Origin: Candidatus Polarisedimenticolia bacterium
GTDB taxonomy: Bacteria; Acidobacteriota; Polarisedimenticolia; Gp22-AA2; AA152
Length of the DNA stretch: 64,000 nucleotides
Direction of reading: 5' to 3'
NCBI GenBank assembly: GCA_036004685.1
Contig: DASYRE010000037.1
Coordinates: forward strand, 33,217 to 97,216
Part shown: positions 33,515 to 46,002 of the stretch, piece by piece
Layout: the number at the start of each line of letters is the position of its first letter
Numbering within the stretch: position 1 is the first letter of the stretch
Program-made: the position numbers and the translations under genes
Notes under the pieces: model-generated
What the model was told of the DNA's origin: nothing
What the model saw: only the letters and a program-made list of their open reading frames with translations
Databases searched by the model: none

Positions 33515-35755
33515 TCAACGGGATCCATTCGCCCGGAACAGCGTCTTGGCGGTGGCGGAGTTTCCCTCCGCATCGTGGGCCCGCACCACGAAGGCGTATT
33601 CCCCTGGGCTGAGGGCGGAGATCTCGACGCGATAATCCTCGCGGCTCGAGTCGGTGATCCCGTCGACGGGATTGATCGCCTTCCACTCCGCCGCGTTCAG
33701 GGAATACTCCACGATTCCAAGCATCGAGAACGAGTCCTCCACGCCGAACTCCAGCTTGGCCGTCGATCCCGCCACGGAGGCCTTGATCGGCGTGACCCGC
33801 GGAGGGTTGTTGTCGATGTCGAACGGCTCGCTGAGCCTTTCGGAGGAAAGGGCTGCCCCGTCCGGATTGGACGGAGAATCGTCCGCGACGACGCGCACGA
33901 GGTAGGTCCCGTCCGACATGGACGTCGCGTCCCAGCTGAAGAAGGGATCCGTGAGATCCTTTTCCATCAGCTTCCACTCCTTCTCGTCGACGCCGCGATA
34001 GTAGACCGAGTACTGGAGATCGTCGCCGTTGGGATCCTGGGAATTCCACTGGACCGCCCGCCCGTCCTTGTCGTTTTGCGGCCGGGGCTGCTGGGGGGGG
34101 CGCCTGGCCGGGTGCTCGCGGTCGGCGCCGCGTCCAGCCCCCCCCGCTCCCTCCGAAGGAGCTGCCGCCGTGGCGTTGTTTCGATTGGGCCGCTGAAACA
34201 CGACTCCCGGGGACTGCACTTCGACCGACTTGAGCTCCGGAGGAAGGTTGCGCTGCAGGAAATTCAGCGTGACCTCGCCGAGCCGGGGGGCCGCCTTGCC
34301 GTCCGAGCTCTTCAGGGTGGCCCGCCATTGGACGTAGCGGGCTCGCGGGCGGTCGATCAGCGTCTCGGGGTTGCGGGCGGCGGGCGACCAGTCGGACCAA
34401 GTGGCGTCGGGATCCGAGGTGTTTCCCGTGCGGACCTGGAGGGCAATCGAGGAGCCCGCCGGTGTCTCCCCTTTCCAGGCGATTCTTCCCCAGCTCGAGA
34501 AGACCTTCGCGTCGAAGGGGACGGTGACGAACGTCCCTTCCGAGGCGATTCTCGCGCCCAGACGGTACAGCGCGCCGAGATTGTTGCAGGCGACCAGGAA
34601 AGAACCGCCCGGCTCGGGAAGGAGCGCGCTGACCTGGGCCGATTCGGCCTTCCCCAGCAACGTGGCCTCGCCCCGTCCGGGATCGACCCGATAGATCCTC
34701 CCGTCCGTTCCCGCTCCCGCGATCAAAGTGCCGTCCCGGTCCACCGCCAGGGAAAGAATCAGGTCGCCCATGCCGGTCCAGATTTCGCGCGTGTAGCCAT
34801 CGGGCTCGACGAGGACAATCCTCGACTCGACGGCCGCCATCGAGGGGGGCGCCGGGGCCGCCGGCTGCGGCGTGGGAGGCGGCTGCGGCGGCTCCGGCGG
34901 GGGCTGCCCGGGAGCCCGTTCCTCCTCCGCCGGCGACGGGCGTGGCGACGCAGGGGGAGGCGAAGTCCGCGCCGCCGCCCCCCGGCCCGCCGTCTGACCC
35001 GCGGCGGCGAAGTAGATCGTGCCGCGGGGATTTGCGGCCAGCGCGGTGACCTCGCCGAGCGGGGAGTTCGCCAGAACGGTACTCTTTCCAGACCGATCGA
35101 TCCGAAGAACGAGCCCTTTGCCGTCCGTTCCGGCGATCAGCCCGCCTCCGGAGGCCGGGATGAGAATTCGCACGTGGGTTTCGTCGGTGTCGAGGAAAAC
35201 TTCCCCCTTGCCGGAAGGCGATACCCGATAGATCCTTCCCTCCGTCCCGGTGGCGGCGTAGAGATCGCCGCCTTGGTCGAACGCCAGCGACCAGATGTAG
35301 GTCTCCCCGGGAGCGAAGAAGTCGCTGGCCTTGCCAGAGGGACTGACGCGATAGATCTTGCCCCGGGGTGAGGTCCCCACGTAGAGGTTGTCTTTCGAGT
35401 CCACCGCGAGGGCGTGGACTTCGAGCTCCGGCGTGTCGAGGAAAAGCGACAGCTTGCCGCCCTTCTCCAGCCGGTAGACCTTTCCCTCGCTCCCTCCTCC
35501 CGCGTAGATGTTGCCGCGGGAATCCCGGGCCAGCGCCCACAGGTAGGGATCGGCCGACTGAGCCAGACTCTCCAGCGCCGGCCCGAGAGTCAGGGATCCG
35601 TCGTTCAGGAGCGACACACCCTTGAGATCCCCCTGCTCTCTCTCGCCGCGCGTCCGGTGTCTCCAGGTCTGGGAGGAAGCTGCCCAGATCGGCGCCGCGA
35701 GCGCCAGCGCCGCGAGCGCCACGAACCCGTATCGAGCCATGCCTCGATGCATCAC
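33515..35755 (-). CDS. Secreted beta-propeller protein with C-terminal Ig/FN3-like domains
   Basis: 746 residues. Signal peptide ending PIWAASSQ. Residues about 65-270 and 310-400 contain repeated blades (GNIYAGGGSEGKVYRL, DNLYVGTSPRGKIYRV, GDLYAATGTEGRIYRV, GTLIAGAGTDGRIYRV), a six- or seven-blade propeller interrupted by a 40-residue Pro/Ala-rich linker near 270-305. The second half has fibronectin-like beta-sandwiches (YSVYYRGVDEKEWKLME, TYLVRVVADDSPSNPDG, LSPGEYAFVVRAHDAEGNS). A ligand-binding or structural role at the cell surface is likely. Third gene after the unknown/S55 pair. Confidence 0.72.
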   Translation of the reverse strand: MMHRGMARYGFVALAALALAAPIWAASSQTWRHRTRGEREQGDLKGVSLLNDGSLTLGPALESLAQSADPYLWALARDSRGNIYAGGGSEGKVYRLEKGGKLSLFLDTPELEVHALAVDSKDNLYVGTSPRGKIYRVSPSGKASDFFAPGETYIWSLAFDQGGDLYAATGTEGRIYRVSPSGKGEVFLDTDETHVRILIPASGGGLIAGTDGKGLVLRIDRSGKSTVLANSPLGEVTALAANPRGTIYFAAAGQTAGRGAAARTSPPPASPRPSPAEEERAPGQPPPEPPQPPPTPQPAAPAPPSMAAVESRIVLVEPDGYTREIWTGMGDLILSLAVDRDGTLIAGAGTDGRIYRVDPGRGEATLLGKAESAQVSALLPEPGGSFLVACNNLGALYRLGARIASEGTFVTVPFDAKVFSSWGRIAWKGETPAGSSIALQVRTGNTSDPDATWSDWSPAARNPETLIDRPRARYVQWRATLKSSDGKAAPRLGEVTLNFLQRNLPPELKSVEVQSPGVVFQRPNRNNATAAAPSEGAGGAGRGADREHPARRPPQQPRPQNDKDGRAVQWNSQDPNGDDLQYSVYYRGVDEKEWKLMEKDLTDPFFSWDATSMSDGTYLVRVVADDSPSNPDGAALSSERLSEPFDIDNNPPRVTPIKASVAGSTAKLEFGVEDSFSMLGIVEYSLNAAEWKAINPVDGITDSSREDYRVEISALSPGEYAFVVRAHDAEGNSATAKTLFRANGSR

Positions 35756-35774
35756 TCCTCCGCGGTGACGGACG

Positions 35775-37583
35775 TCAGCGCACCTGGACGCTCATCCGGC
35801 GGCCGCCGGTGAGGACGAAGTCGGTCTTCTGCGAGTCTTCGAGCAGGGGGAGATCGGGATAGGGATACTCCTCGGCCGCGTAACGGCTGCTGCCGAGCGT
35901 GAACATCACGGAAAGGGGCAGCGAGGGGAGCGCCTCGCCCTGCACCACCGCCCCCAGGCTGCGCCGTGCCAATTGAAGATAGACTTTTTCGTCGGACCGG
36001 AGTCCGTTGAGGAAACGGATGACGTCGTCGACGTCCTCAGCCCCGGTGAATCGGCGCTGCAGGAGATTTCCCTCGATCTGGTTGAGGTTCCGCGCGCTGG
36101 ACACGGTGAGGAGGAGGGGCCCTTTGGGAGTGTCGGGGGGCACTCGCACGCGGAATCTCCGGAGGAACGGCTCCGCCCGGTAGGGCTGGATGGAGACGCT
36201 TACCGTGAGGTCCTCCCCCGCCCTCGCGGTGGCCGGTGTCACGGAAACCTCCCCGATTCGCGCCATCCGGGCCTGTGGAATCGATTCGGCCCGCATCGCC
36301 AGCGATTTGACCCGCACCTCGCTGAAGCGGTTCCCGTAAACGGCGTTGAAGATCGTCGCCACGTCGCGCGCCACGTCGGCGGGAGTCCCGGACTGCGGTC
36401 CGCCCTGATTGGCATCCACCGCGGCATAGACCACCGGGGGGTGCCCTTCCAGATCGATGCGGAGCTCGGTGCGCAGCGTCTCCTCGGCGGAGTACTCCAC
36501 GATCCGCTGCAGGCTGGCCTGAACGGCGATCCCCAGAAGCAGCGGCGTGAGGATGCGGTTCTCCACCACTTCGTAGTTCATCCGCCTCTCCCCTTCGGGC
36601 GAGGCGTGCACGATGCTGACGGGAAGCATCCGGGGAGCCGGGCCGATCTCTCCCTCGATGCCCGTGAGACGATCCCCTTTGAGCGTGCCGATGGTGCTGG
36701 TGGCGTTGGAAATCTTGAACGATCCCATGGCGGAGGGATAGGTGACGACGATTTCGGCCCGGAGCATCGGGTAGTCGACGGGTCCGGTGCCGAAGAAGGG
36801 ATGCCCGAAGGCCCAGATCCGGTTGCCCTCGACGTGGGTCAGGGTTCCCGTCGCCGCGATGCTGAGGTCACCCGAGATCAGCGCCACCGCCAGCGGGACC
36901 CCCGGCTCGATCGGGTATTCGCCGCCTGCACTCCCCCCTCCCCCGCCTTGCACCGGCTCGAAGCCGCGGGCGCGGAAGAGAGGCGTCGCCATCCGGATCA
37001 CCGATTCGGGGAAGCCGGAGAAAACGAGAGGCGTGCCGATGCGGCGCATCGCCGCGCCGGCCTCCGGAAGGTCGGAGGAGTCCCCGGACGCGGCGGCCGG
37101 GGGGGCGGTCCATTCCGCCAGCAGCGCGCCCGCGCTCGTCGGGCTCGCCGTGGAGCGCGCCGGCGTCTTTCCGGGGACTTTCAGCATGTCCGCGATCGGG
37201 GTGATGCCGGCGATCGCCTCCTTCTCGAAAGCCCCCAGCCGGTACGAGATCGCTCCGACGAGCTTCCCGTCGAGCATCACGGGACTCCCGCTCATGCCGG
37301 CGATCACTCCGGTGCGCTCCACGTTCTTCCCGTGAAGCCTCGAGACGATCATGTCCTGGCCGGGTCCGATGGCGTTCTTCAGAATCCCGAGAAACTCGAC
37401 CTCGAACTCTTCCGGAACGTGGCCCTGGAACACGGTGCGGCCGACTCCCGTCATGCCGGGCCGAATCTGCTCGGGGGGATAGAACGAGCCGTCGGCCGAG
37501 CCGCGCGGCGCCGCCCCCACGAGGCTGCACAGGATTGCGGCCGCCGCGGCCAGAGCGATTCTTGACCGCCGTCTGCGCGTCAT
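35775..37583 (-). CDS. S55 (SpoIVB-type) serine peptidase domain protein
   Basis: 602 residues with a signal peptide (AAAAAILCSLVGAAPRGSA). Residues about 35-135 match the start of S55 peptidases: PPEQIRPGMTGVGRTVFQG, EFEVEFLGIL and the catalytic-serine motif VIAGMSGSPVMLDGKLVGAI. The other members of the catalytic set could not be placed with confidence. SpoIVB is known for regulated intramembrane signalling in Bacillus, but such genes also occur in Gram-negative bacteria with unknown targets. Residues 400-600 form an extra beta-rich domain. Gap of 7 nt to the upstream unknown gene and 19 nt to the propeller gene, so one operon. Confidence 0.75.
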   Translation of the reverse strand: MTRRRRSRIALAAAAAILCSLVGAAPRGSADGSFYPPEQIRPGMTGVGRTVFQGHVPEEFEVEFLGILKNAIGPGQDMIVSRLHGKNVERTGVIAGMSGSPVMLDGKLVGAISYRLGAFEKEAIAGITPIADMLKVPGKTPARSTASPTSAGALLAEWTAPPAAASGDSSDLPEAGAAMRRIGTPLVFSGFPESVIRMATPLFRARGFEPVQGGGGGSAGGEYPIEPGVPLAVALISGDLSIAATGTLTHVEGNRIWAFGHPFFGTGPVDYPMLRAEIVVTYPSAMGSFKISNATSTIGTLKGDRLTGIEGEIGPAPRMLPVSIVHASPEGERRMNYEVVENRILTPLLLGIAVQASLQRIVEYSAEETLRTELRIDLEGHPPVVYAAVDANQGGPQSGTPADVARDVATIFNAVYGNRFSEVRVKSLAMRAESIPQARMARIGEVSVTPATARAGEDLTVSVSIQPYRAEPFLRRFRVRVPPDTPKGPLLLTVSSARNLNQIEGNLLQRRFTGAEDVDDVIRFLNGLRSDEKVYLQLARRSLGAVVQGEALPSLPLSVMFTLGSSRYAAEEYPYPDLPLLEDSQKTDFVLTGGRRMSVQVR

Positions 37584-40233: not shown

Positions 40234-40263
40234 TTGCCCGCCGCGGCACGTTTTGTTTAGGAT
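40234..40263 (+). promoter_or_regulatory. Candidate promoter for the halogenase-like gene
   Basis: TTGCCC (40234-40239), 18-nt spacer, TAGGAT (40258-40263), giving a leader of about 52 nt to ATG 40322. Confidence 0.4.
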
Positions 40264-40321
40264 GGCAGCTTCCAAGACGTTTCGGCCGGACGACGCTTCC
40301 GCCGGCCTGAAGGAGGAATCG

Positions 40322-41677
40322 ATGCTCGAAATCCGCGCCGCCGAGGCGCCGGCGGACGTCGCCATCATCGGCGGAGGACCCGCGGGATCGACCGCCGCGG
40401 CGCTTCTCGCTTCCGCCGGCCGGCGCGTCGTCCTTTTCGAGAAGGAGAAGTTTCCCCGGTTCCACATCGGGGAATCGCTTCTTCCCTTCAGCACCGACCT
40501 GGTCAGGCGCCTCGGGATCGAGACGAAGCTCCAGGCGGAGCAGGTGAAGAAATGGGGCGCGCGGCTGATCTCAAGCGACGGCGCCGTGACCCGGTACATC
40601 TGCTTCGAGGAAGGGCTCGTTCCCGGCTACCCCAGCGCTTATCAGGTCCTCCGCTCGCGCTTCGACGAAATGCTCCTGCAGAACGCCGCGGATCGAGGGG
40701 CCGAGATCCACCAGGGCGTTTCGGTCGTGGAGGCGACCGCCTCGTCCCGGAGCGGGTGCGAGCTGACGGTGCGCGACGCGGCAGGAAATCTCAGCCGGCA
40801 TCGGGCGCGGTTTCTTCTCGATGCGAGCGGCCGGGATGCCTTCCTCGCGTCCCGCAAGGGGCTTCGCCGGATGACGCCTCATCTTCGCAAGGCGGCCGTC
40901 TTCGCTCATTACGAAGGGGTCGCCCGGGATGAAGGACGCGCCGCCGGGGACATCATCCTGGTCATCCTCAAGGACGCCTGGTTCTGGATGATCCCCCTCG
41001 CGGGCGGCCGGACGAGCGTGGGGCTGGTCCTCGAGGGAGCGGCCTTAAAAGGAAGCGGCCTGGCCCCGGGGGACCTGCTCGAAGAGTCGATTCGGCGCTG
41101 CCCGGCGGCCCGGATGCGGATGTCGGGAGCCCGGCGGGTGTCGGGCTATTGGACCGCCAGCGATTACAGCTACCGCTGCCGCGAGGTGGCCGGCGACGGC
41201 TATCTGCTGCTCGGGGACGCGGCAGCCTTCATCGACCCCGTCTTCTCGACCGGAGTCTGGCTGGCCATGTCCTCGGCGGAGATGGCCGCCGACACGCTGC
41301 ACGCGGCGCTGGGCTCGAAGGGGCGGAAGGAGAATCTCTCGCCCTCGGTCTTCGCCGCTTATGAGCGCAAGGTCATCCGCCACGTCCGCCATTACACCCG
41401 GATCGTCAGCGCCTTCTACCGGCCCGGGTTCATGGATCTCTTCCTGCAGCCTTCGACTCGGCTCGGAGTGAAGGAATCGGTGATCACCCTCCTGGCGGGA
41501 CACATGCAGCCGCCTTTCTCGGTGCGCTGGCGCCTGGCCCTCTTCTATCTCGGACTGCGCATCCACCGCTTCTTCCCATTGCGGCCCGCCGTCCCCCTGC
41601 TGGGCGCGATGGAAGCGCCCGGGCCGGAAGCCGCGCGCGCCCCCGCGGCGCTGAATTCCGAGGACCTCCGGGCCTAG
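40322..41677 (+). CDS. Flavin-dependent halogenase-like monooxygenase
   Basis: 451 residues from ATG 40322, with GAAGGAGGAA upstream. FAD-binding GGGPAGSTAAALL at residues about 15-27, FPRFHIGESLLP typical of the halogenase/oxygenase branch, the W-x-W-x-I-P motif as WFWMIP (near residue 222), and GDAAAFIDPVFSTGV near 300. W-x-W-x-I-P plus the DPxFSxG block is the hallmark of flavin halogenases, although many environmental members hydroxylate or act on carrier-bound substrates. A reductase partner is not seen nearby. Its stop shares the bases CTAG with the stop of the convergent acyl-AMP ligase. Confidence 0.75.
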   Translation: MLEIRAAEAPADVAIIGGGPAGSTAAALLASAGRRVVLFEKEKFPRFHIGESLLPFSTDLVRRLGIETKLQAEQVKKWGARLISSDGAVTRYICFEEGLVPGYPSAYQVLRSRFDEMLLQNAADRGAEIHQGVSVVEATASSRSGCELTVRDAAGNLSRHRARFLLDASGRDAFLASRKGLRRMTPHLRKAAVFAHYEGVARDEGRAAGDIILVILKDAWFWMIPLAGGRTSVGLVLEGAALKGSGLAPGDLLEESIRRCPAARMRMSGARRVSGYWTASDYSYRCREVAGDGYLLLGDAAAFIDPVFSTGVWLAMSSAEMAADTLHAALGSKGRKENLSPSVFAAYERKVIRHVRHYTRIVSAFYRPGFMDLFLQPSTRLGVKESVITLLAGHMQPPFSVRWRLALFYLGLRIHRFFPLRPAVPLLGAMEAPGPEAARAPAALNSEDLRA

Positions 41678-43080
41678 TCCTCCGGAAGGCGGGCTTGCCG
41701 CAGAAGCAGGCGGCGATCCAGCTTCCCCCGCTCGCTGCGCGGCAGCTCCGGCAGGAACAGGATTCGGCGGGGCAGCTTGTAGGCGGCGACGCGCTCCCGC
41801 AGGAACCTCATCACCTCTTCCCGCGTCATCCCGGCCCGGGCGACCAGGCAGGCGAGAAGCGATTCGCCCCGGGCCGCGTCCGGGATCCCCAGCACCGCAG
41901 CGTCGGCGACTCCGGGAAGCGCCAAAAGCGCCGCCTCAACCTCGCGCGGGTTCACCTTCCGTCCCGAGACGTTGACCAGGCTTCCGAGGCGGCCGGTGAG
42001 GTGGAGCAGCCCCGGCGCGTCGATCCGGCCGAGGTCCCCCGTGCGGAACGTCTCTGCCCTGAATTCCCCGTTGGCCGAATCCCCCGAGCCGCCGACGTAG
42101 CCGGAGGCGACATTGGCGCCCCGGACGACGACCCGCCCCTCCTCCTCGAGCAGCACCTCGACGCCGGGAAGCGGCGTTCCCACGCAACCTTCCGAGCTTT
42201 CCGCGGCGAGACCGTCCGGCGAGGCGTCGTAGGTGATGCCTCCGGTCTCCGAGGAACCGTAGAAGGCGCGGACCGGCAGGCCGAAGCGGCTCCGGAAGGC
42301 GCGGGCGGTCGACGGCTTCAGCAAGGCGCCGGCGCACAGGCAGGTCTTCAGTCCTTGGGGGGCGAAACGGACCTCGGGCGAGCGCCCGAGAAGATCGTAG
42401 AAGTACGGGACCCCCGGGAAGACCGCCGGCCGCTCGATCGCCAGCGCCGGGACGAGCTGCTCGGGCAGGGGCGAGACGAGGAGAAGAGGAGATCCCTGCA
42501 GGACGAGCGGCATCAGCAGACTGTCCATGCCGTAGGAATGGGAGAGCGGAATCGCCCCGATGTTCAGGTCCTCCGGCCCGATGTTCATCCCCTTGATCAG
42601 GTGCTCCGTGTCGGCGAGGAGCGAAGCGGCGGTTACGGCGATTCCGCGCGGGCTTCCGGTGCTGCCGGAGGAGAGCTTGATCACGGCGGTGCCGTCCGGG
42701 AGGGCGCCTCCGGCCGGGCCTCGCGGCCCTTCGGCGACGAGGTGCGCCGGACCTTCGCGCAGCAGGATCCGGGGGGAGAAGGCGCGGCGCAGCGCCTGCC
42801 GCTCCGGGAGGGAAAGCTGAGGCTCCGCGGTCAGGACCACGGCGTCGCAGGCCCAGCAAGCCAGGACGCCGATCACGAACGGGACGCCGGTCAGCCCCTC
42901 CAGGAGGACGACGTCTCCCGCCTGGATCGAGGCGCCCCGCAGCTCCCGGATGCAGGCGGCGACGCGGTTCTTCAGATCGTGGCCCGGGACGGGGGGGCCC
43001 TGGGTCCCGCACCGCACGATCTCGCGCGTCGTGGAGGCGGAGGCTTCGAAACGCAGAAAAAGTTCCAGCGGCGCCATCAT
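41674..43080 (-). CDS. Acyl-AMP ligase (ANL superfamily), second copy
   Basis: 468 residues (ATG 43080 or 43077). P-loop LSSGSTGSPRG, A5 motif YGSSETGGITYD, hinge FRTGDLGRIDAPGLLHLTGRLG, and C-terminal catalytic lysine in RSERGKLDRR. Layout and several blocks (VFPGVPYFYDLLG versus FFPGVPYLFDMLG) show that it is a paralogue of the ligase at 17483-19039. It lies tail to tail with the halogenase-like enzyme, suggesting that they could act on the same carboxylate, though convergent genes are not an operon. Confidence 0.82.
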   Translation of the reverse strand: MMAPLELFLRFEASASTTREIVRCGTQGPPVPGHDLKNRVAACIRELRGASIQAGDVVLLEGLTGVPFVIGVLACWACDAVVLTAEPQLSLPERQALRRAFSPRILLREGPAHLVAEGPRGPAGGALPDGTAVIKLSSGSTGSPRGIAVTAASLLADTEHLIKGMNIGPEDLNIGAIPLSHSYGMDSLLMPLVLQGSPLLLVSPLPEQLVPALAIERPAVFPGVPYFYDLLGRSPEVRFAPQGLKTCLCAGALLKPSTARAFRSRFGLPVRAFYGSSETGGITYDASPDGLAAESSEGCVGTPLPGVEVLLEEEGRVVVRGANVASGYVGGSGDSANGEFRAETFRTGDLGRIDAPGLLHLTGRLGSLVNVSGRKVNPREVEAALLALPGVADAAVLGIPDAARGESLLACLVARAGMTREEVMRFLRERVAAYKLPRRILFLPELPRSERGKLDRRLLLRQARLPED

Positions 43081-43149: not shown

Positions 43150-46002
43150 TCAGGAGCGCTGCGACTCCACGTCGGAGAGCAGCGCCCGGACCTCGGGCTG
43201 CGCCGGATCGAGGGAGAGCGATTCCTTGAGACTCTCGATGCACTTCTGAATCTGTCCGGTCTCATGGTAGGCCACGGCGAGGCCGTTGAAGAGGGCCGGC
43301 GAGCGGAATCCCCGCCGGCGCGTCTCTTCGAACTGAGCGATCGCCTCGCGGTGGCGTCCCGCCTTCCCCAGGGCGGCGCCGAGGTTCATCCGGGCCTCGT
43401 AGTTCGTCGGCTCTTTCGCGACGGCCCGGCTGAGGATGCGGATCGACTCCTCCAGCCGCCCGGTCCGGGCGCACAGCGAGCCGAGGTTGGCGAGCACTCC
43501 CGCGTAATCGGGATCCAGCTCGGCCGCCCGCCGGAGATGCTTCTCGGCGCCCGCCCAGTCCCCCTCGCGCTCGAGGATCAGCCCCATCAGGTTGTGATGT
43601 CCCACCGAGTTCTCGTTCAAGGAGAGGCCGCGCGCCACCTCCGGCTTCAGCGTCGCCTCCTCCCCTTTCTTCTTCAGAATCTCGAACAGTCTCGCCGCCG
43701 CTTCCGGTCCGGCGGGATCCTCCCGGACGGCCTGCCGGTAGAGGGCTTCCGCCGCGGCCGCTTCCCCCTTCGCCTCACGCAGCCGGCCGAGGGAGAGGGA
43801 GGCCTCGGCGACGCCGGGACGGCTTTCGCGCAGCCGGGAGAAGTAGGCGATTCCCTCCTCGAGGCGTCCCGATTTCTCGAACAGGCCGGCCAGGCTGCTC
43901 ATCACTCCGCGCTCCGATCCGCCTGAATCGACGATCTTCCGGTAGACCTCCAGCGCCTTGTCCGTCCGGCCGGTGGCCTGATCCAGCGAGGCCTGCGTCA
44001 TCAGCGCCGGCAGGTAGTCGGGGACGATCCGCAGCGCCGCGTCGATTTCCGCCTGGGCCTTCGCGAAGTTCTTCGATTTCAGGTGAAGTGCCGCCAGGTT
44101 GGAATGATAGGTCACCGTGTCGCCCGTCAGCTCTCCGCTCGGGGCCTCGTCCCGGCTTCCCCCGCCCCCGTCTCCCGAGGCGATGTAGCCCAGAGAGCGC
44201 AGGCTCTCGATCATCTGCCGATCGGCTTCGGTCGTCGCCGTGGCGGACGACTCGGGCCGCGCTCCGAGCTCGTAGGTCTCGACTCTCTCGAGCGCCAGGC
44301 TCTTGGCTTCCGCCGGCCTGAGCGCTTCCGCGAGGACGCGCCCCTTCATTTCGCGCGACGGAGGGATCCCGGCCAGCGCCAGTACCGTCGGGGCGACGTC
44401 GAGCAGCGACACGGTGTCCAGGGCTCCGGGACGGACCCCGGGGCCGGCGATCAGGAAGATTCCGTAGAGACGGTGCCATTTACCCGGCTTCCCCTCGATA
44501 TAGGGAGGATCGTCGGTGGGGCGGCCGGAGCCGTTCTTGAATCCGTGGTCGGAGAGCAGCACCACGGTGGTGCGCGGATCGGCGTGCTGGAGGATCTCGC
44601 CGAGCAGGCGGTCCTGGTAGCGATAGAAAGCCTCCACGACGCCGTGGAACTGCCGGTACTCGTCGTCGGTCACCATGGCCATCTTCGGCGGCATCATGTG
44701 GGCGAAGCGATGCCCGACTTCGTCGATCCCCTGGAAATAGAGCATCGTCAGATCGCTCTGCCCGCGCCCGAGCAGCTCCAGCGCCAGGGTCTGGTAATTG
44801 CGGGTCGAGGCGAGAATTCTCGTCAGATGGTTCACCGGGTCGGCATAAGCCTTGCGGGGATCGCCTTCCTGGATCCGCGCGCGCCGCTCCTGGAAATCCA
44901 CCGCCGTGACGTCCGCGAATTTACGGACCTCGCCGAGGGTGATGTCGGCGTCGCTGACGAGGCGGCCGCGCGCCGTGGCGAGGAAGTCCTCCGGATAGGT
45001 GGCGCCGGGAAGCTTCTCGGCGTCGGCCTGATAGCCGAACAGCGAGTAGGAGACGCGATCCGAGATCATCACTCCGCGGATCGGCTCGGAGGGCCAGGAG
45101 GCCCACCAGGCGACGACGTCCACCGTTCTCCCCATTTCGCTGAAGATGTTCCAGAGCGCCTCGACCTTGCGGAACCGCGACGAGATCGGCACCCGCTCCC
45201 CGGTGCCGGGATCCTTGACGAGAAAATCGACGATCCCATGCTCCTCGGGCGTCCGGCCCGTGGCCACCGTCGTCCAGAGCAAGGGCGAGAGGATCGGCTG
45301 CATCGATTTCAGGTTGGCCCAGGCGGCCGCCGACTTGAGCCGGGCGAGCGTGGGGAGCTTGCCCTCCCGGATCCAGGGATCGATCAACTGCCAGTCGGCC
45401 CCGTCGAGTCCGATGAGCAGAATCTTTCTCCCGGTGCTCCGGGAGCGCGCTTGCAGCGCGGTGATCGCCGAGGCCCTGCGGGCCTCGGGCGCGCCGGCGG
45501 CGCTGCCGAGGACGAGACGCACTTCCTGCAGGCCCAGAGCGGCCAGCTCCCCGGCCACCGCGTCCGGAATGCTCCGGCTCTCCCCGGCGGTCCATTTTGC
45601 CGCCGATTCTCCCGACAGCCAGGCGGAGAGGGTCCTTTGCACCGCCTCCTGCAGGAAGACCCGGACGGGGCGGCCGCGCGCCCGCTCGTCGAAATCGCCC
45701 AGGCGCGCCGGATCGATCCGCCCCGAGAAATGGTACGGCAGGCGCAGACTGACGCCTTCGGAAGAAGTGAAATCGCCCGTTCCGTCGACCGCGAGCCGGG
45801 CCGAGGGATAACGATGCACGGTCTGCAGCAGGGGGATCCGGAAATGCAGGCCGGGGGCGAGGACTTTCGGGGAGCCGAGGCCGAATCCGCCGCGCTGCAC
45901 CGCCTGGAACCCCGCCGGGACCCGGGTCAGCGTGGCGCACAGAACGAGGATCGGGAGCAGGAAGAGGGAGGCCGGGAGCCATGGACCGGGTTTTCTCGGC
46001 AT
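43150..46002 (-). CDS. SPFH - alkaline-phosphatase-superfamily - TPR fusion protein
   Basis: 950 residues. Residues 11-27 form a membrane anchor (ASLFLLPILVLCATLT). Residues about 28-175 look like an SPFH/band 7 domain (VPAGFQAVQRGGFGLGSPKVLAPGLHF, written here only in part: GFQAVQRGGFG, LAPGLHFRIPLLQTVHRYP, RVFLQEAVQRTLS). Residues about 192-560 are an AlkP-superfamily phosphodiesterase: metal-site LIGLDGADW, probable nucleophile Thr in WTTVATGRTPEEHG, FQGIDEVGHRF and LLSDHGF. Residues about 620-945 are TPR repeats. No substrate can be named. A phosphodiesterase facing the periplasm, tethered and assembled by its own SPFH and TPR parts, fits the order. Confidence 0.78.
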   Translation of the reverse strand: MPRKPGPWLPASLFLLPILVLCATLTRVPAGFQAVQRGGFGLGSPKVLAPGLHFRIPLLQTVHRYPSARLAVDGTGDFTSSEGVSLRLPYHFSGRIDPARLGDFDERARGRPVRVFLQEAVQRTLSAWLSGESAAKWTAGESRSIPDAVAGELAALGLQEVRLVLGSAAGAPEARRASAITALQARSRSTGRKILLIGLDGADWQLIDPWIREGKLPTLARLKSAAAWANLKSMQPILSPLLWTTVATGRTPEEHGIVDFLVKDPGTGERVPISSRFRKVEALWNIFSEMGRTVDVVAWWASWPSEPIRGVMISDRVSYSLFGYQADAEKLPGATYPEDFLATARGRLVSDADITLGEVRKFADVTAVDFQERRARIQEGDPRKAYADPVNHLTRILASTRNYQTLALELLGRGQSDLTMLYFQGIDEVGHRFAHMMPPKMAMVTDDEYRQFHGVVEAFYRYQDRLLGEILQHADPRTTVVLLSDHGFKNGSGRPTDDPPYIEGKPGKWHRLYGIFLIAGPGVRPGALDTVSLLDVAPTVLALAGIPPSREMKGRVLAEALRPAEAKSLALERVETYELGARPESSATATTEADRQMIESLRSLGYIASGDGGGGSRDEAPSGELTGDTVTYHSNLAALHLKSKNFAKAQAEIDAALRIVPDYLPALMTQASLDQATGRTDKALEVYRKIVDSGGSERGVMSSLAGLFEKSGRLEEGIAYFSRLRESRPGVAEASLSLGRLREAKGEAAAAEALYRQAVREDPAGPEAAARLFEILKKKGEEATLKPEVARGLSLNENSVGHHNLMGLILEREGDWAGAEKHLRRAAELDPDYAGVLANLGSLCARTGRLEESIRILSRAVAKEPTNYEARMNLGAALGKAGRHREAIAQFEETRRRGFRSPALFNGLAVAYHETGQIQKCIESLKESLSLDPAQPEVRALLSDVESQRS

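What the first reader, a model, noticed from the sequence alone, without database searches (positions are those of the whole stretch)
43150..46002. 950-residue SPFH-AlkP-TPR fusion
A membrane anchor and band-7-like domain, an alkaline-phosphatase-superfamily phosphodiesterase and about ten TPRs in a single chain. SPFH proteins build ring-like microdomains, so this may form a multivalent phosphodiesterase cage at the membrane. I do not know of a described system with this order.
Basis: partly seen in the sequence, partly recalled or inferred. Interest (0 to 1): 0.68.

Follow-up and report, generated by a model that had tools for sequence, protein, structure and literature searches.

The report
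SPFH-anchored phosphatase-like TPR protein family
A soil-type Acidobacteriota bacterium carries six versions of a protein that joins a prohibitin-like membrane base, a two-metal phosphate-ester enzyme and a long protein-binding arm; this combination is conserved across its relatives but I found no description of it, so it is a real, uncharacterised enzyme family rather than a chance fusion.

Summary
Window 43150-46002 (-) is one 950-residue ORF: transmembrane helix, SPFH domain, alkaline-phosphatase-superfamily (AlkP) domain, nine TPRs. Residues 1-191 alone pass Pfam's Band_7 cut-off and fold as SPFH (pLDDT 91; prohibitin Z 15.6). All seven metal/nucleophile residues of the AlkP site are invariant in 37 homologues. 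It is not a one-off: this genome has six full-length paralogues, and 32 of 41 genomes of its class carry about 72, several in conserved gene neighbourhoods. Outside this group the same AlkP-TPR unit mostly has a lipoprotein signal where the SPFH base sits, so the unit works outside the cytoplasm at a membrane. Two parts of the interpretation are weaker. The 'cage' lacks the coiled-coil wall of known SPFH cages: a 15-residue helix runs straight into the enzyme. 'Phosphodiesterase' is not established: the nucleophile is Ser, and the phosphate-binding Asn of NPPs is an invariant Phe, although the fold is closest to NPP/ENPP. Best reading: an inner-membrane-anchored periplasmic AlkP enzyme with a TPR docking arm, substrate unknown, SPFH as membrane-proximal base that may oligomerise. 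New variant of a known kind.

The parts
43150..46002 (-). SPFH-AlkP-TPR protein, 950 aa, whole ORF
45931..45981 (-). transmembrane helix, residues 8-24; N-terminus cytoplasmic by positive-inside rule
   Evidence: model helix 8-24; N-flank more positive than C-flank in 34 of 37 homologues
45508..45930 (-). SPFH (SPFH1+SPFH2) domain, residues 25-165
   Evidence: Band_7 25.3 bits over cut-off; AF2 pLDDT 91.4; prohibitin Z 15.6, erlin, HflK/C, stomatin
45445..45489 (-). short helix residues 172-186, at the place where cage-forming SPFH proteins have the long CC1 coiled coil
44287..45435 (-). AlkP-superfamily catalytic domain, residues 190-572
   Evidence: PF01663 1e-30; closest solved folds ENPP3/ENPP1/XacNPP Z about 27
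45403..45405 (-). Asp200, metal ligand
   Evidence: invariant in 37; aligns with the DG motif of PhnA/XacNPP
45286..45288 (-). Ser239, predicted nucleophile
   Evidence: aligns with the catalytic Thr of PhnA (Ala in the mutant entry 3t02) and with XacNPP Thr90; invariant
45223..45225 (-). Phe260 in place of the phosphate-binding Asn of NPP/SPAP
   Evidence: Asn role from PMC3145672
44710..44724 (-). Asp427 and His431, metal ligands
44545..44550 (-). Asp485-His486, metal ligands
44473..44475 (-). His510, metal ligand
   Evidence: invariant; role assigned by family knowledge
44122..44190 (-). flexible linker, residues 605-627
   Evidence: 610-626 pLDDT under 50
43156..44115 (-). TPR superhelix, residues 630-949, nine repeats plus cap helix
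   Evidence: OGT-like TPR superhelix
46128..47850 (+). divergent DrrA/DrrB-like ABC transporter pair, a conserved neighbour of this copy (not part of the protein)
   Evidence: same neighbours beside the 62%-identical orthologue L135

Best explanation
It is an inner-membrane-anchored periplasmic enzyme of the alkaline-phosphatase superfamily. One N-terminal transmembrane helix (N-terminus inside) holds the SPFH domain against the outer face of the inner membrane. The SPFH domain carries, without a coiled-coil wall, a two-metal AlkP domain in which Ser239 would attack a phosphate ester and form a covalent phospho-enzyme, released by water (hydrolase) or by another alcohol (transferase). A flexible linker then presents a nine-TPR superhelix that docks a partner or a protein substrate. 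The SPFH base sets the height above the membrane and may assemble several copies side by side. Shown by computation: domain order, SPFH and AlkP folds, intact metal/nucleophile set, invariant Phe260, paralogue family. Inferred: topology, catalysis, docking role of the TPRs. Not shown: substrate, mono- versus diester, oligomerisation.
For: SPFH fold. AlkP fold nearest NPP/ENPP, Z about 27 over 274 residues. Asp200, Ser239, Asp427, His431, Asp485, His486, His510 all invariant in 37 proteins with 38% mean column identity. Positive-inside charge bias in 34 of 37. The closest AlkP-TPR relatives without SPFH mostly have a lipobox at that place (36 of 42 non-SPFH rows), so the shared unit is extracytoplasmic and membrane-tethered. 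Strong selection on the AlkP domain (median pairwise identity 41.5%, against 19.5% for SPFH and 24.7% for TPR). Ancient paralogue lineages with conserved neighbourhoods.
Against: No substrate evidence. Phe260 replaces the Asn that binds the phosphoryl oxygen in NPP and SPAP, so a non-phosphate ester or a loss of activity is conceivable, though the invariance argues against loss. Topology is by charge rule only. SPFH proteins may face either side of the membrane. The docking role of the TPRs is analogy.
Confidence: 0.6

Rival explanations
1. Multivalent ring or cage: the SPFH domains assemble into a ring of many subunits, with AlkP domains in place of the coiled-coil wall and TPRs as outer arms; the paralogues, and the SPFH-TPR protein without AlkP, could co-assemble.
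For: SPFH fold is clear; all known SPFH complexes are homo-oligomers or built of two related SPFH paralogues (PMC12624060); the genome has six paralogues plus a conserved SPFH-TPR protein lacking AlkP.
Against: No CC1/CC2/cap region, and PHB1/2 assembly depends on CC2 contacts; SPFH is the fastest-evolving domain (19.5% median identity, one invariant residue). No oligomer could be predicted with these tools.
Confidence: 0.15
2. The SPFH domain is only a monomeric spacer and anchor, exchanged in evolution for the lipoprotein anchor of AlkP-TPR enzymes (compatible with the best explanation; it settles the open point on oligomerisation the other way).
For: Relatives have a lipobox at the same place; SPFH diverges fastest; no coiled coil; AlkP-TPR is found in several other phyla.
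Against: A complete, confidently folded SPFH1-SPFH2 domain is kept across an old family, more than an anchor needs.
Confidence: 0.4
3. The protein belongs to an outer-membrane uptake or envelope-glycan pathway: the AlkP trims phospho-esters of imported or exported glycans or lipids.
For: Oar-like TonB-dependent receptor directly upstream on the same strand in seven of the 80 loci and in L136; TMEM260-like mannosyltransferases near short lipoprotein AlkP-TPR in ten loci; LptF/LptG permease convergent with one lineage in 15 loci.
Against: The window copy has none of these as direct neighbour; other lineages sit beside ruvC/ruvA or metK/ahcY, which points to no pathway; convergent genes need not be linked in function.
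Confidence: 0.2
4. Degenerate enzyme used as a binding scaffold.
For: NPP/SPAP phosphate-binding Asn replaced by Phe.
Against: All metal ligands and the Ser are invariant in 37 proteins and in the lipoprotein relatives.
Confidence: 0.08

Closest known systems
SPFH proteins (prohibitin, erlin, stomatin, HflK/HflC, QmcA)
   Same: N-terminal membrane helix followed by SPFH1-SPFH2; fold match Z 11-16; HflK/C-like periplasmic placement by charge rule
   Different: No CC1/CC2 coiled coils or C-terminal cap; an enzyme and TPRs follow instead; SPFH sequence strongly diverged
NPP/ENPP phosphodiesterases (XacNPP, ENPP1, ENPP3)
   Same: Closest solved fold of the AlkP domain (Z about 27); same bimetal ligand set
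   Different: Ser instead of Thr nucleophile; Phe260 instead of Asn111; fused between SPFH and TPR
Phosphonoacetate hydrolase PhnA
   Same: Best sequence match among solved structures (E 2e-10); nucleophile position aligns
   Different: Score far below the NCBIfam PhnA cut-off (26 against 408 bits); Ser instead of Thr, Phe instead of Asn
AlkP-TPR lipoproteins of Acidobacteriota, Myxococcota, Krumholzibacteriota, Eisenbacteria and others
   Same: Same AlkP-TPR unit, 34-41% identical, same active-site residues
   Different: Lipobox signal instead of TM-SPFH base; shorter TPR part in many
Own-genome SPFH-TPR protein (L015:10477-11754)
   Same: SPFH and TPR parts related to this protein; conserved across the order
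   Different: No AlkP domain, 426 aa

Membership tests
SPFH domain superfamily | Band_7/SPFH profile match | tested here: met
   25.3 bits over the 23.6 cut-off for residues 1-191; 29 of 38 homologues match at E 0.01
SPFH domain superfamily | SPFH1-SPFH2 fold after an N-terminal membrane segment | tested here: met
   AF2 pLDDT 91.4; prohibitin Z 15.6 over 190 residues
Cage-forming SPFH proteins | long coiled-coil (CC1/CC2) after SPFH2 | tested here: not met
   one 15-residue helix 172-186, AlkP starts at 193; 101-residue CC1 in erlin
Cage-forming SPFH proteins | ring or cage oligomer | not testable with these tools
   no complex prediction or EM
Alkaline phosphatase superfamily | AlkP fold, two-metal ligand set and nucleophile | tested here: met
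NPP phosphodiesterases | Thr nucleophile (Thr90) | tested here: not met
   Ser239
NPP phosphodiesterases | Asn111 bound to the phosphoryl oxygen | tested here: not met
   Phe260 in 37 of 37 by sequence alignment; Asn role PMC3145672
NPP phosphodiesterases | phosphodiesterase activity | not testable with these tools
   needs assay
SPAP-type alkaline phosphatases | Thr89 and Asn110 (half of the four-residue signature) | tested here: not met
   Ser239 and Phe260 at the equivalent positions of XacNPP/PhnA; the Lys171/Arg173 equivalents were not located
TPR proteins | tandem 34-residue helix pairs | tested here: met

The most novel reading that the evidence does not exclude
An SPFH ring whose walls are enzymes: the AlkP domains take the place of the coiled coils and project TPR arms outward, giving a periplasmic, membrane-seated array of phosphate-ester enzymes, perhaps mixed from several paralogues and the AlkP-less SPFH-TPR protein.
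Probability: 0.15. Interest if true: 0.85.

Novelty: new variant of a known kind. Interest (0 to 1): 0.52.

Why it matters
SPFH proteins are normally scaffolds whose molecular jobs are hard to pin down. Here nature has fused the SPFH base in one chain to an enzyme that can be assayed, in up to six paralogues per genome kept across a large Acidobacteriota clade, so what an SPFH base contributes could be tested by swapping it for the lipoprotein anchor that relatives use. The AlkP subfamily itself (Ser nucleophile, invariant Phe at the phosphate-binding Asn position) has no substrate that I could find.

Tried and rejected
Chance or frame artefact: rejected, six paralogues and about 72 class copies. 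N-terminal domain not SPFH: rejected. Incomplete enzyme site: rejected for metals and nucleophile. Filing as NPP or PhnA: rejected on Thr and Asn. Using the window's neighbourhood for function: the downstream AMP-ligase is not conserved in the 62%-identical orthologue, where an APH-like gene stands there; only the divergent ABC pair, DegP-like protease and dehydrogenase are. Literature: no paper holds SPFH with AlkP-superfamily and TPR terms; word searches in the Hinderhofer 2009 survey of prokaryotic SPFH proteins (PMC2636767) and in a 2026 Pseudomonas survey (PMC13086221) found no such fusion. Subscription papers could not be searched. First alignment with the SPFH-TPR protein included gave no conserved stretch for a collection scan. 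A census centred on another phylum was not possible, so the absence of SPFH fusions outside Acidobacteriota rests on the 80 best loci of one scan, which favours SPFH-bearing Acidobacteriota.

Full report
Observation. The ORF at 43150-46002 (-) is exactly as described, 950 aa. The genome (G000) is a 3.84-Mb assembly whose named relatives are Acidobacteriota metagenome genomes.

Domains. Pfam gives Phosphodiest 195-492 (1e-30), TPRs over the C-terminal third, and Band_7 27-127 slightly under threshold. Submitted alone, residues 1-191 exceed the Band_7 threshold; 29 of 38 homologous N-termini match Band_7. In the own-genome paralogues Band_7 is over threshold in four of five, and an alignment-based profile finds the fifth (G000:C13) at 2e-37. 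AlphaFold2 on residues 1-191 with 38 sequences gives pLDDT 91.4. The best solved folds are prohibitin, erlin, HflK/C, stomatin, QmcA, flotillin and vault (prohibitin Z 15.6, 190 residues).

Full model. The 950-residue model (pLDDT 87.8, pTM 0.73) has helix 8-24, SPFH, a 15-residue helix 172-186, AlkP from 193, a low-confidence linker 610-626 and 19 TPR helices 630-949 (nine repeats and a cap). The AlkP part is nearest to ENPP3, ENPP1 and XacNPP (Z about 27, 274 residues at 2.8-3.0 A), then PafA and sulfatases. No long coiled coil follows SPFH2, unlike erlin and prohibitin, whose CC1 helices form the cage wall and whose CC2 contacts matter for assembly (PMC12624060).

Active site. Profile alignment to PhnA and XacNPP places Ser239 at the nucleophile; in entry 3t02, whose sequence differs from 3szy in having Ala for the catalytic Thr, it is that Ala which aligns. 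Asp200, Asp427/His431 and Asp485-His486 fall on known metal ligands, and His510 is the remaining invariant His. All are invariant in 37 homologues and in nine diverse relatives, most of them lipoproteins. This answers the second refutation criterion at the sequence level; metal geometry was not measured. Position 260, which falls without gaps on the Asn that binds a phosphoryl oxygen in NPP and SPAP (PMC3145672), is Phe in 37 of 37. The fold therefore says NPP-like, but the substrate class cannot be read from it.

Topology. The flank before the membrane helix is more positive than the one after it in 34 of 37 (mean +3.0 against +0.2; for the window protein itself the two are equal), so the N-terminus should be inside and the rest in the periplasm. 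Relatives without SPFH mostly carry a lipobox before AlkP, which agrees.

Family. The own genome has six full-length copies (window, C36, C25, C23, C31, C13), one AlkP-only lipoprotein (C49) and one SPFH-TPR protein without AlkP (C16). Full-span matches (my count): about 72 in 32 of 41 genomes of the class, in all 12 genomes of the order. In the rest of the phylum the profile finds SPFH in ORFs of over 900 codons in at least four sampled genomes (the list is truncated). In a tree of 86 AlkP domains the SPFH label needs 7 changes against 29 after shuffling: strongly clustered, but one origin is not shown, and support at the base is weak. SPFH-bearing rows with a stated phylum are all Acidobacteriota.

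Neighbourhoods. Paralogue lineages sit in old conserved places: yebC-ruvC-X-ruvA-ruvB; dnaE-metK-ahcY-X facing LptF/G and parB/parA; X next to truA; X next to moeA/prfA-like genes (truA; parA/parB and moeA/prfA recognised by eye). This suggests ancient, separately maintained roles but no pathway. The window copy keeps its divergent ABC-2 transporter, a DegP-like protease and a dehydrogenase with the orthologue in G128. Oar-like TonB receptors stand directly upstream of several members, and TMEM260-like mannosyltransferases beside the short lipoprotein forms. An envelope-glycan or uptake role is possible.

Mechanism and verdict. I commit to an inner-membrane, periplasmic AlkP enzyme with Ser nucleophile, a TPR docking arm and an SPFH base; chemistry and substrate are inferred. 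The SPFH domain evolves fastest (19.5% median identity against 41.5% for AlkP), which fits an anchor or spacer better than a strict cage, but oligomerisation is untested. The domain combination is, as far as the searchable literature goes, undescribed; each part is of a known kind.

Noticed in passing
L010:3600-8807, L046:236-6096; also L045, L049, L050, L052: A lineage of this family sits inside the Holliday-junction operon, yebC-ruvC-[SPFH-AlkP-TPR]-ruvA-ruvB, with ruvC stop and family start overlapping by 4 bases in L010 and L046.
   Followed up: partly
L013:6399-18725; also L058-L060, L062, L064, L067, L068, L070, L076, L098, L102, L106, L109: Another lineage follows dnaE-metK-ahcY and faces a convergent LptF/LptG permease and parB/parA across much of the class.
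   Followed up: partly
L015:10477-11754; G201:C217, G128:C211, G145:C80, G161:C26, G119:C104, G019:C13: SPFH-TPR protein of about 430-450 aa without the AlkP domain, conserved across the order: a possible partner or ancestor.
   Followed up: partly
L048, L055, L057, L061, L111, L113, L118, L136: Oar-like TonB-dependent receptor (CarboxypepD_reg plus barrel) directly upstream on the same strand of SPFH-AlkP-TPR or AlkP-TPR genes.
   Followed up: partly
L082, L086, L087, L088, L094, L095, L097, L099, L100, L101: TMEM260-like (DUF2723) mannosyltransferase with TPRs in the neighbourhood, often adjacent, of short AlkP-TPR lipoproteins in Acidobacteriota and Myxococcota.
   Followed up: partly
window 33515-37583: Beta-propeller protein and SpoIVB-type S55 peptidase-like protein; homologues stand next to SPFH-AlkP-TPR genes in L040 and L043 (peptidase also in L041, L042).
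   Followed up: partly
window 40253-43080: Tryptophan-halogenase-like FAD enzyme convergent with an AMP-binding acyl ligase just downstream of the finding; not conserved beside the nearest orthologue.
   Followed up: partly
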